Assembly (NCBI RefSeq): GCF_024296685.1
Contig: NZ_CP100763.1
Location: 3,534,001 to 3,598,000 of the forward strand
Direction of reading: 5' to 3'
From: Natrinema marinum
GTDB taxonomy: Archaea > Halobacteriota > Halobacteria > Halobacteriales > Natrialbaceae
DNA: 64,000 nucleotides
A program made the position numbers and the translations under genes. Below the pieces are notes generated by a model. It saw nothing but the letters and a program-made list of their open reading frames with translations, was not told where the DNA came from and did no database searches. Positions 19,048 through 22,065 of this stretch are shown in pieces; the stretch's first letter is position 1; each line of letters starts with the position of its first letter.

Positions 19048-20556
19048 ATGCGTCGGAATACGAGACGACGGTTCCTGAAAGGGTGCATGACGGCCGCCGT
19101 GGCCGGTGGGGTGCTCGCAGGGGCCACCGATGTGGGTGCGACGACCGAGCGTGAACGCGGATCGACCGGGACGCCCTCCCTGCCGCCCGAGGCGACTACC
19201 GACTGGTCGACCGCACGGGGTGGCCCCAGCCGAACGGGTGCCGTCGGTTTCGAGGACGGGTTCGGGGAAGAATTCGATTTCGACTCGCTCGAGACCGCCT
19301 GGACGGCCGACGCCGAGGCGTTGCCCGTCGTTGCCGACGGGACGGCTTACCTGTCGGTCGACGGGGCGGTACGCGCCCTTGACGCCGCCGACGGCACGCT
19401 CGAGTGGCGATGCGAGGGGCTCGGTGCCGGCGGCCAGCCGACGGTCGCGTACGGGACCGTCTACGTCGGCTGTAACGGGACCGTGACCGCTCTCGACGCC
19501 GCGACCGGGGCCGTCCGGTGGGAGACCGCGGTTGCCGACACCACCCTCGAGTCGCCCACGGTCGCCTTCGGGATGGTCTACGTCTTCGCCGGGGGGAGCC
19601 TGACCGCGATCGACTGCGAGACGGGCGCGATCGAGTGGACCCGCAACGCCGTCGAGGTGTCCACCGGCGATCCCTGGGAGGAACCGCGAACGGTCGAGCG
19701 AGCGCTCGAGCGCGACGTGGTCGCAGCTGACGACTGCGTCTTCGCGATTGCCGAGGACGGTACGATCGTCGGCCTCGCACCGCTCTCCGGCGAGCCGGAG
19801 CTCACGATCGGGACGAACTACTACTACTTGTACGATCTCGTCGCGACCGGCGGCCGGGTCGCCGTCAGAACGGAGTCCGAAGTCGTCGCTGCCTACGATT
19901 CGGCGACCGGCGAGCGAACGGGAACCTGGCACGGCGGAGTCCGCAAGCTCGCCGTGCGCGGCGACACGCTCGTGTTCGTCACGCGCTACGAACTCGTCGC
20001 GGTCGATATGGCACGTGGCGAGAAACGGTGGACCGTCGGGAACTACTCCCACGCCATCGGCGATCCGGTGATCGCCTGTGATACGGTTTTCGTCGGCCTG
20101 GGCCTGCAGGGTGGCCGATACGAGAACTGCCTCGTCGCGTTCGACATCGACGACGGCAGCGAGCGTTGGGTTCGATCGCGGACGGACAGCGCCCACGTCG
20201 GGGACCGATGCGTCGTCGCCGATCAGACGATCTACATCGACGACGGCGGGCTGACCGCGATCCGCGCGGGCTCCGGAGTTGACGACGAGGATGTCGATGA
20301 CACCGTCGACGACGAGGACGCTGACGACGGCGTCAGGGACGAGGACGCAGATGACGAGAGTGGCGATGATGGGGCTGGTGACGGGGACGACCGGCAAGGC
20401 GACGGCCGTCCGCGACAGCGACACGACGATCAGTTCTCCCACGGTCGGGCGTGGAACCGCCCAGCGGAGGGGACTCGAGCGAACGCTGGCTCGCGTCCCG
20501 GACGGGGACGACGACGCGTCTCGAGCTGGCTGAAGCTCCTGTATCGGTGGCGGTGA
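19048..20556 (+). CDS. Secreted PQQ-type beta-propeller protein
   Basis: A 502-aa protein with a Tat-type signal (RRNTRRRFLKG, then TAAVAGGVLAGATDVGA). Repeats of the PQQ/outer-membrane-assembly propeller type follow, recognisable by ALDAADGTLEWR, ALDAATGAVRWE, AIDCETGAIEWT, AYDSATGERTG and AFDIDDGSERW. No lipobox is present. The C-terminus is a long Asp-rich then Arg-rich low-complexity tail (residues about 410-502), which may contact the cell envelope. Such propellers act as binding scaffolds, and quinone binding is not implied. The 3' end lies 60 bp from the 3' end of the RNase P RNA gene on the other strand. Confidence 0.85.
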   Translation: MRRNTRRRFLKGCMTAAVAGGVLAGATDVGATTERERGSTGTPSLPPEATTDWSTARGGPSRTGAVGFEDGFGEEFDFDSLETAWTADAEALPVVADGTAYLSVDGAVRALDAADGTLEWRCEGLGAGGQPTVAYGTVYVGCNGTVTALDAATGAVRWETAVADTTLESPTVAFGMVYVFAGGSLTAIDCETGAIEWTRNAVEVSTGDPWEEPRTVERALERDVVAADDCVFAIAEDGTIVGLAPLSGEPELTIGTNYYYLYDLVATGGRVAVRTESEVVAAYDSATGERTGTWHGGVRKLAVRGDTLVFVTRYELVAVDMARGEKRWTVGNYSHAIGDPVIACDTVFVGLGLQGGRYENCLVAFDIDDGSERWVRSRTDSAHVGDRCVVADQTIYIDDGGLTAIRAGSGVDDEDVDDTVDDEDADDGVRDEDADDESGDDGAGDGDDRQGDGRPRQRHDDQFSHGRAWNRPAEGTRANAGSRPGRGRRRVSSWLKLLYRWR

Positions 20557-20744
20557 CGGCCGGCTGCGTTCCGGTCGCTCTCGCTGGTATTGGTGCCGTC
20601 GCTCTCGCGGAGGAAATGGGTGAGAGGAGTAAGCCCCCTTCTGTTCGGCCCGGCATTCGGCTGAGCGTCCGCGCCGTCCGCGGCGGTGCCGCGGGGCGTT
20701 CGGGCTACCACGGCGCGGACTTGCACCGGTGAGGGTTCGCCGTT

Positions 20745-21010
20745 CCATCGATCCTCGGCCGTCTGCGCGCGGTCGATCGTGACGGGACGTTCGACGGCTC
20801 GCACCGTCTCACAGTTCGCGGTTCTCGCACCGGTGGCGCTCCGAACCGCGCTCACGATCCGCGGTTTCGAACCACGTTTTGACGACCGCACGCGATTCGC
20901 GGCGTCCGCCGCTCATCTGTCGGCAACTCTCGCGCCAGCGGCGCTTCGAGTCGCCCGTTCGGCGGTTCGCACCGCCTCACGAATCGTGGCCGCCAAGCGG
21001 CCACGCAGTC
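20745..21010 (-). repeat. Duplicated branched modules in the RNase P P12 region
   Basis: Two related modules lie in the RNA between the conserved core parts. Module 1 is enclosed by GAUUCG/CGAAUC. It contains GGCGGU-GCGA-ACCGCC and the stem GGCGACUC/GAGUUGCC holding GCGCC-GCU-GGCGC. Module 2 is enclosed by GAUCGUGA/UCACGAUC. It contains CGCGGUUC/GAACCGCG holding GCGCC-ACC-GGUGC, plus GACGGU-GCGA-GCCGUC. Matching hairpins keep the GCGA loop while both stem strands change together, which supports real RNA helices derived by duplication. Confidence 0.7.
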
Positions 21011-21164
21011 CCTCTGCGGGTCAACTCCCCTTCCTCTCGGTCGGGTTCGCGCGCATCATCGGTCGGGCCGAGACGTGTCGTTTCTGTTCCAGAGCCAGCG
21101 GTCTCCCGCTCCGGACTTGCGTCCGGTCACCCGCCCGAACGGGTGGGGGGACTTTCCTCGCGAG

Positions 21165-21300
21165 CGTGGCGCATCTCGGAGAGATGGGCCACGTTATGAG
21201 CGTGATGCATCCCGAAGGGATGGATCACGTTACGAGCGTTGGGCAACCCGGAGGGTTGGCCAACGGTAGAGCGTTGCGCATCCCGAAGGGACGGGCAACG
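21165..21300 (-). repeat. Four tandem 29-nt hairpins in RNase P RNA
   Basis: Hairpins at 21272-21300, 21237-21265, 21201-21229 and 21165-21193, period 35-36 bp, separated by 6-7-nt linkers. Each has a 13-position stem with a C-C mismatch at position 7 and a UUC or UCC loop. Stems differ but stay paired (lower arms GUUGC/GCAAC, GUUGG/CCAAC, GUGAU/AUCAC, GUGGC/GCCAC). The only other irregular pair is G-U on the RNA strand but would be A-C on the other strand, which fixes the functional strand as minus. They occupy the P2-P3 position of the RNA. Confidence 0.85.
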
Positions 21301-21382
21301 CGAGGGAGGTGGTCGCGCCGTTGCCGACGCGACCATCGCGGCAGCCGGGCTCTCTCTCCCATCACTCCTAGGCGCGTCGGGC

Positions 21383-21390
21383 GAATAAGT
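21383..21390 (-). promoter_or_regulatory. TATA-like box of rnpB
   Basis: ACTTATTC on the minus strand, centred about 25 bp upstream of the 5' end predicted from P1 pairing, which is the usual archaeal TATA spacing. Confidence 0.5.
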
Positions 21391-21465
21391 CCCCCGATCG
21401 GAGTACAAAAAGCGCCCCGCAGCGAATGGAAGCGTTTTAGGACGACTACTCCCTTGTGTTTCTGT

Positions 21466-22065
21466 ATGTCCCAGGGACAGGGCGTCGACCTTTCCTACGA
21501 GGACGGTGCGCGCGCGGTCGAACTCGCGCGTGAATCCGTCGAATCCTACGTACAACACGGGCAGCGAGAACAACCGGGCAGCATGCGCGAAGCCTTCTAC
21601 GAGCGGACCGGCGCGTTCGTCCGCCTCGAGTCGACCCGCGGGCGGGGGAGCCTGCGGGGCTGTGCGGGCGGCTACCGCTCGGGCGACCAGCTCGGACACG
21701 TCATCGTCGACGCGGCGATCGAAGCCGCCAGCGAGGACTCCTGTGGCTCGGAAGTGAGCCCCTCGGAACTGCCGAACCTCACGGTCTCCGTCTGCACCGT
21801 CCGAAACGTACTCCTGACCGACGATCCGCTGGCCGATCTCGAGGTCGGTACCCACGGCGTCGCCATCGACGGCGGCGAGGGCGGTTGGCTCTATCCCACG
21901 GTACCGGTCGAAAACGGCTGGAGCGCCCGCGAGTACCTCGATCGCACCTGCCGGAAGGCCAAACTCGCGCCGGAGGCCTGGCAGGACGACGACGTGATCG
22001 TCACGCTGTTCGAGGGACAGGTTTTCCGCGAGCGCGAGGCCGACGGCAGCATCGAGCAGGTCTAA
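21466..22065 (+). CDS. AMMECR1-domain protein
   Basis: A 199-aa protein from the ATG at 21466 (MSQGQGVDLSYEDGARAVEL). The same frame is open far upstream, but that part is antisense RNase P RNA. AMMECR1 hallmarks are visible: the LRGCAGGY motif (about 64-71, with the invariant RGC), then SVCTVRNVLLTDDPLADLEVGTHGVAI and YLDRTCRKAKLAPEAWQDDD. The family is found in archaea and eukaryotes; its function is unsettled, though archaeal members are sometimes linked to a MEMO-like partner. The start is about 75 bp from the divergent RNase P RNA promoter. Confidence 0.92.
   Translation: MSQGQGVDLSYEDGARAVELARESVESYVQHGQREQPGSMREAFYERTGAFVRLESTRGRGSLRGCAGGYRSGDQLGHVIVDAAIEAASEDSCGSEVSPSELPNLTVSVCTVRNVLLTDDPLADLEVGTHGVAIDGGEGGWLYPTVPVENGWSAREYLDRTCRKAKLAPEAWQDDDVIVTLFEGQVFREREADGSIEQV

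What the first reader, a model, noticed from the sequence alone, without database searches (positions are those of the whole stretch)
20745..21010. Duplicated, covarying branched modules in the P12 region of RNase P RNA
Two modules share layout and loops (GCGA tetraloops in GGCGGU-GCGA-ACCGCC and GACGGU-GCGA-GCCGUC; GCGCC-GCU-GGCGC and GCGCC-ACC-GGUGC) while both strands of each stem differ in a paired way. The outer stems GAUUCG/CGAAUC and GAUCGUGA/UCACGAUC close each module. With the hairpin array this brings the RNA to about 747 nt. It looks like growth of a catalytic RNA by internal duplication.
Basis: partly seen in the sequence, partly recalled or inferred. Interest (0 to 1): 0.68.

Follow-up and report, generated by a model that had tools for sequence, protein, structure and literature searches.

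The report
Hairpin-built expansion of RNase P RNA

Summary
(1) They are not in P12: P12 is an ordinary 41 nt here. The 246-nt expansion (20764-21009) lies 3' of P12, in the 3' strand of P11 just after J12/11. (2) They are not two copies of one branched module made recently. 'Module 1' is a row of four hairpins; its proposed closing stem has pair probability 0.002. 'Module 2' caps a separate helix, with the hairpin types in the opposite order, and each window HX hairpin is closer to same-site copies in other genomes (up to 88% and 91%) than to its partner (68%). In the family (Natrialbaceae, inferred) the expansion has a conserved, covarying core: a three-way junction with a hairpin whose loop has tRNA T-loop sequence (97 of 120 genomes; 0 of 62 outside the family). 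Two sites on that core gain and lose related hairpins; the window's segment is the longest of the 187 loci measured. Growth of haloarchaeal RNase P RNA is published (as P12.1/P12.2); I found no account of the T-loop core or the shared hairpins. Function is inferred, not shown.

The parts
20618..21360 (-). rnpB, RNase P RNA (ends approximate)
   Evidence: RF00373 over model 1-288 at 20622-21177, 74.4 bits, E 1.6e-20, below the gathering score of 84; the 5' part that the model misses was set from P1 sequence
21015..21055 (-). P12, 41 nt, unexpanded (UGCG/CGCA)
20764..21009 (-). expansion segment in the 3' strand of P11, just after J12/11 (246 nt)
   Evidence: comparison with plain relatives; coordinates
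20985..21007 (-). site A, hairpin 1 (HP0), CGUGGCCGC-UUG-GCGGCCACG
   Evidence: MFE
20954..20983 (-). site A, hairpin 2 (TGA): GA/GA internal loop, GCGA cap
20922..20955 (-). site A, hairpin 3 (HX): 8 bp, GAA/GA loop, 5 bp, 3-nt cap
20894..20917 (-). site A, hairpin 4 (GA type): GAU-GA-GCGGC-GGAC-GCCGC-GA-AUC
20884..20893 (-). helix Pi, 5' strand GCGUGCGGUC
   Evidence: covariation in relatives; coordinates
20860..20876 (-). T-loop hairpin CGUGG-UUCGAAA-CCGCG
20852..20859 (-). helix Bi, 5' strand GAUCGUGA
20817..20850 (-). site B, HX hairpin: 8 bp, GGA/GA loop, 5 bp, 3-nt cap
20788..20813 (-). site B, TGA hairpin: GA/GA internal loop, GCGA cap
20775..20782 (-). helix Bi, 3' strand UCACGAUC
20765..20774 (-). 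helix Pi, 3' strand GACCGCGCGC

Best explanation
A lineage-specific expansion segment of the specificity domain of an archaeal RNase P RNA. Shown by comparison: it is inserted in the 3' strand of P11, just after J12/11 and 3' of an unchanged P12. In the family it has a conserved core: an outer helix (Pi), a hairpin capped by a loop of tRNA T-loop sequence, and a second helix (Bi). Two places on that core, the strand before Pi (site A) and the tip of Bi (site B), are filled in some genomes and empty in others, partly with related hairpins that carry GA-mismatch loops. Inferred: the core is a peripheral brace beside the surface that grips the tRNA elbow, with the T-loop making a kept contact with RNA or protein. 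The site A and B hairpins are loosely constrained additions with fast turnover, related between the sites through old or repeated copying, which stabilise or merely decorate the domain.
For: Location: Rfam alignment of plain relatives; P12 stem in many compensated forms; P12 is 41 nt in the window, in 24 of 25 plain and 117 of 124 expanded segments measured. Core: full core in 95 of 120; 92 two-sided changed cells against 28.5 in shuffles, 98.0% of 492 cells paired, on 26 sequences; T-loop hairpin in 97 of 120 against 0.95 in 20 shuffle rounds, on 24 different 5' stems; 0 of 62 genomes outside the family. Sites: site A filled in 43 of 95, site B in 34, both in 15, neither in 33; HX and GA/GA hairpins above shuffles at both; HX covaries. 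Same-site likeness of HX.
Against: No probing or structure. Core rows were selected for pairing, and HX rows partly picked by eye. 25 of 120 family genomes lack the full core. The GA/GA hairpin is not special to the family: 5 of 28 expanded loci of other families have one. Site separation is incomplete for TGA. The turnover count rests on a weak rnpB tree, and HX and site B TGA changes (5, 12, 5) are no fewer than about the shuffled means (5.8, 12.3, 4.9). In the window itself the loop could extend by two U-A pairs in the MFE.
Confidence: 0.6

Rival explanations
1. Recent internal duplication: module 2 is a copy of module 1 (or the reverse) made in this lineage.
For: TGA copies are 0.875 identical with a compensated pair and are the only two in the genome.
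Against: HX copies are only 0.68 identical while same-site copies elsewhere reach 0.88 and 0.91; hairpin order is reversed and module 1 has no closing stem; the site A order recurs in L146, of another genus.
Confidence: 0.07
2. Capture of dispersed hairpin repeats: the modules are copies of intergenic GA-mismatch hairpins that landed in rnpB.
For: One HX-like hairpin (34.7 bits, rough E 9.8e-7) lies in the spacer between genes that read by eye as dnaK and dnaJ, with other GA-mismatch hairpins. GAGCGAACGNAGTGAGCGAG has 20 genome matches at up to 2 mismatches against 6 for the reversed control. GA/GA hairpins also occur in rnpB of other families.
Against: Apart from rnpB only that one HX match exceeds 23 bits in 3.77 Mb, and two weak ones (22.3, 21.0) lie in a protein-coding frame; no TGA match outside rnpB within 3 mismatches; no match of the simple motif in the window at up to 3 mismatches.
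Confidence: 0.12
3. A platform for extra L7Ae: the GA-mismatch hairpins are kink-turns that bind more copies of this RNase P protein.
For: L7Ae binds kink-turns in the P12 and P16 regions of other archaeal RNase P RNAs (PMC4245976, passages; PMC6565675, passages); the hairpins have tandem GA.
Against: The kink-turn's 3-nt bulge before the GA pairs is missing: loops are 2x2 (TGA) and 3x2 (HX).
Confidence: 0.1
4. Neutral growth throughout: the whole segment, core included, is tolerated baggage with no function.
For: Sites A and B vary from empty to 125 nt among near relatives; 25 of 120 family genomes lack the full core.
Against: The core loop keeps its sequence while the stems change in a paired way.
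Confidence: 0.2

Closest known systems
Haloarchaeal growth of P12.1/P12.2 (PMC12974513, PNAS 2026; passages and section 13 read)
   Same: Enhanced growth of the specificity domain of RNase P RNA in the class Halobacteria.
   Different: They place it in P12.1/P12.2 and say such segments are often inserted at the tip of P12; here P12 is unchanged and the growth is in the P11 3' strand. Their SI Fig. S11 was not seen, so it may be the same growth under another name.
P12 kink-turn extension bound by L7Ae (PMC4245976, PMC6565675; passages)
   Same: A structured addition in the specificity domain with GA pairs.
   Different: No 3-nt kink-turn bulge in these hairpins, and another insertion point.
tRNA T-arm
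   Same: Stem closed by G-C and a 7-nt loop UUCRANN (consensus recalled).
   Different: It lies in RNase P RNA, and no tRNA match was found in the region.
P10.1 of type B/C bacterial RNase P RNA (named in PMC2858038, passages; position recalled)
   Same: An extra helix near P10/P11.
   Different: As I recall it leaves from the 5' side, not the 3' strand; not compared here.

Membership tests
Archaeal RNase P RNA (RF00373) | Match to the covariance model over its length | tested here: met
   Model 1-288, 74.4 bits, E 1.6e-20, but below the curated cut-off of 84 because of the inserts; single match in the genome; orthologues in 29 of 29 genus genomes
Archaeal RNase P RNA (RF00373) | Pre-tRNA 5' cleavage | not testable with these tools
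   needs a bench assay
P12 (P12.1/P12.2) extension | Insertion at the tip of P12 | tested here: not met
   P12 is 41 nt as in plain relatives; the insert lies 3' of it
L7Ae kink-turn | 3-nt bulge followed by tandem sheared GA pairs | tested here: not met
   TGA loop is 2x2 and HX loop 3x2; definition
L7Ae kink-turn | Binding of L7Ae | not testable with these tools
   none
tRNA-type T-loop | Loop UUCRANN closed by G-C | tested here: met
   Window UUCGAAA; 88 of the 97 T-loop hairpins found are UUCRANN; closing pair G-C in 91 and A-U in 4 of 95 cores. Consensus recalled.
tRNA-type T-loop | U54-A58 reverse-Hoogsteen fold and a docking partner | not testable with these tools
   needs probing or a structure

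The most novel reading that the evidence does not exclude
RNase P RNA of this family carries its own copy of the substrate feature it recognises: a tRNA T-arm look-alike inserted next to the J11/12-J12/11 surface that grips the tRNA elbow. It may dock there or be modified by the enzymes that modify tRNA T-loops, and so tune substrate binding or couple RNase P to tRNA modification. Around it the ribozyme grows from a small set of hairpins placed at two sites and even nested in one another (L151).
Probability: 0.15. Interest if true: 0.82.

Novelty: new variant of a known kind. Interest (0 to 1): 0.5.

Why it matters
It gives a many-genome record of how an essential ribozyme grows: one insertion point, a conserved core, and hairpins gained and lost at two sites of that core. 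If the T-loop hairpin makes a real contact, it raises a direct question: why does the enzyme that recognises tRNA by its elbow carry a T-arm look-alike next to that recognition site?

Tried and rejected
Kink-turn reading of the GA hairpins: my first idea, dropped when the loops proved 2x2 and 3x2. Insertion at the tip of P12: dropped. Inserted tRNA: no tRNA match in 20500-21500. Dispersed repeat: mostly dropped.

Core model R2 over 146 genomes of the order: 29 have a match at E 0.001 or less. All 8 hits of 52 bits or more are in the window's family and at rnpB; all others are at most 38.4 bits. Of 20 family genomes listed, 11 have a hit at rnpB, 2 have only a hit elsewhere (G055, G117) and 7 have none; the model is insensitive to long tips (the window scores 28.7 bits, misaligned after the T-loop hairpin). 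Of the 16 non-family genomes with hits, 10 could be compared with rnpB places and none is at rnpB; 6 (G066, G097, G111, G115, G118, G138) were not checked.

Correction made on review: the first set of 36 loci called 'other' held one locus of the family (L004, same as L060) and one duplicate (L158, same as L002), so 34 distinct genomes, and 30 of the loci were the best-scoring, hence mostly short. I therefore fetched 30 more, nearly all low-scoring; 28 could be delimited (not L250, L253). Result: T-loop hairpin 0 of 28, HX 0 of 28, but GA/GA hairpins in 5 of 28, which weakens any claim that the GA/GA hairpin is special to the family.

Literature: (search listings; 8 of 10 searches) gave no account of a T-loop hairpin or shared hairpins in haloarchaeal RNase P RNA. 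The library holds open-licence papers only; older comparative papers on archaeal RNase P RNA and the 2017 double kink-turn paper (not held) were not seen.

Rows dropped or doubtful: one search had no anchor for 3 of 123 (L065, L066, L115). One search found no full core in 25 of 120; its rows L083 and L084, and probably L094, L096, L130, L136 and L151, are in doubtful register but stay in the 95. One search missed 2 of 159 loci, and 10 of 157 rows pair poorly, several through a wrong anchor. One search missed 15 of 159 loci for P11 and 9 of 159 for P12 length. One search found no 5' end for 7 of 159. A2 holds 26 of the 35 distinct short-tip cores (9 near-duplicates left out). One of 7 site A HX hits (L142) has an odd loop and is probably chance. 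The 'TGA' counts take in every GA/GA 2x2 hairpin, the fourth site A hairpin included.

Full report
What it is. Window 20622-21177 (minus strand) matches archaeal RNase P RNA over the whole model at 74.4 bits, E 1.6e-20, below the curated cut-off of 84; it is the only match in the 3.77-Mb genome. The model misses the 5' part, where another insertion lies; the RNA is about 741-747 nt.

Where the hairpins lie. I took rnpB from 159 loci (157 distinct genomes: 29 of the genus with the window, 94 of the rest of the family, 34 of other families) and cut out the segment from ACAGAAACGA to GAUGRAACG. It is 163-347 nt in the genus (median 229) and 101-325 in the rest of the family (201). The 34 others were mostly the best-scoring and give 103-168 (103); 28 further loci of other families, chosen among low-scoring ones, give 102-245 (164.5). 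The window's 347 is the longest of these 187 loci. In total length the window (741) is second to L151 (822) among the 152 of 159 with a recognisable 5' end. Rfam aligns a plain relative (L024) with P12 = GCG..GC followed by AGAGGGCCGACGG. The 4-bp P12 stem takes many compensated forms (UGCG/CGCA 67, GGCG/CGCC 13, GGUG/CACC 9, AGUG/CACU 4, GACC/GGUC 1, GGCU/AGCC 1 and others among 157 rows), and P12 is 41 nt in the window, in 24 of 25 plain and in 117 of 124 other expanded segments measured. The inner two P11 pairs also vary together (CC/GG 118, UC/GA 9, GC/GC 3, GU/AC 2 of 144; the other 12 do not pair fully). So the 246 nt at 20764-21009 lie after the inner P11 3' strand and 3' of P12. In other families I see by eye insertions in P12 itself (for example L226, L236, L239) or before it (L235, L240-L242), so the insertion point differs between lineages.

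Anatomy, in transcript order: four hairpins at site A (HP0, TGA, HX, GA type); helix Pi; the T-loop hairpin; helix Bi, whose tip (site B) holds an HX and a TGA hairpin; then back through Bi and Pi. The same helices are in the unconstrained MFE of the whole RNA (z -8.17 against 20 shuffles).

The core. Pi, T-loop hairpin and Bi were found together in 95 of 120 family genomes that had an anchor (rows were chosen for pairing, so only the variety of pair types counts). On 26 sequences 98.0% of 492 cells pair, 15 of 19 pairs show a two-sided change and 92 cells do (shuffles 28.5; slid partners at most 13); covariation score 0.581 (shuffles 0.297). A hairpin with loop UUNRANN and at least 4 bp is in 97 of 120 (88 of the 97 are UUCRANN), with 24 different 5' stems; 20 shuffle rounds give 0.95 genomes on average and 4 at most. 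None of 62 genomes of other families has it (34 and 28). This is the sequence of a tRNA T-loop with its closing G-C pair (consensus recalled). The last loop letter is often A, C or U, so the loop is not simply more stem, though in the window two extra U-A pairs are possible.

The two sites. Site A holds 20 nt or more in 43 of 95, site B in 34, both in 15, neither in 33. HX (8 bp, GRN/GA loop, 5 bp, 3-nt cap in the typical case) is found at A in 7 of 43 and at B in 13 of 34 (shuffled means 0.77, 0.47); GA/GA hairpins at A in 20 of 43 and at B in 5 of 34 (0.27, 0.00). HX covaries over 20 sequences, partly picked by eye: 30 two-sided cells against 10.2 in shuffles. HX was found in 0 of 28 expanded loci of other families, GA/GA hairpins in 5 of 28. 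In L151 one HX lies inside another, and L146 has the window's site A order. On an rnpB-core tree site A and site B occupancy change 21 times each (shuffled means 31.5, 27.9), the core 12 (23.0), GA/GA at A 14 (18.2); HX at A 5 (5.8), HX at B 12 (12.3) and GA/GA at B 5 (4.9) are no better than shuffled. The tree is weak, so this suggests fast turnover and no more.

Duplication? The window's HX copies are 0.68 identical; its A copy is up to 0.88 like A copies elsewhere, its B copy up to 0.91 like B copies and up to 0.82 like A copies. Mean identity is 0.783 within A, 0.808 within B and 0.696 between; 0 of 5000 label permutations reach the difference, but rows are related and partly hand-picked. 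TGA copies are 0.875 alike, and the B copy is as close (0.96) to A copies of L146 and L148 as to B copies. TGA occurs only in rnpB (up to 3 mismatches); HX has one good relative, in a spacer between genes that read by eye as dnaK and dnaJ. This fits old or repeated sharing between the sites rather than a recent duplication.

How it may work (inferred). J11/12 and J12/11 form T-loop motifs and the surface that holds the tRNA elbow (established for RNase P; T-loops and S domain in PMC6565675, passages). The expansion leaves next to that surface. A loop kept in sequence on changing stems argues for a kept contact; the changing A and B hairpins argue for loosely constrained additions. The known role of P12 extensions, binding L7Ae through kink-turns, is not met by motif.

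In print. PMC12974513 (passages and section 13) reports growth in P12.1/P12.2 in Halobacteria; its SI figure was not seen. My searches gave no account of the T-loop core or the shared hairpins, within an open-licence library. So the growth is known; the placement, the T-loop and the two-site pattern look new.

Noticed in passing
   Followed up: partly
L160 about 850-1000 (G000:C1:1064050-1064200): Spacer between genes that read by eye as dnaK and dnaJ holds an HX-like hairpin (34.7 bits) and other GA-mismatch hairpins; no Rfam match at E 0.01.
   Followed up: partly
G000 genome-wide: GAGCGAACGNAGTGAGCGAG: 20 matches at up to 2 mismatches (reversed control 6), 6 of them exact; none in the window. 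A small dispersed motif.
   Followed up: partly
   Followed up: partly
L225-L252, other families: Expanded RNase P RNAs of other haloarchaeal families carry inserts at other points, in P12 or before it, and some have GA/GA hairpins too.
   Followed up: partly
L081, L091, L092, L097: Some members of the family have an extra hairpin insertion on the 5' side of P12 (GGCGCGAGCGGUGACGCGAGUCACCGCUCGG type).
   Followed up: no
window 21466-22065, plus strand: Conserved gene next to rnpB; 62 related loci in named genomes, most of them Natrialbaceae.
   Followed up: no
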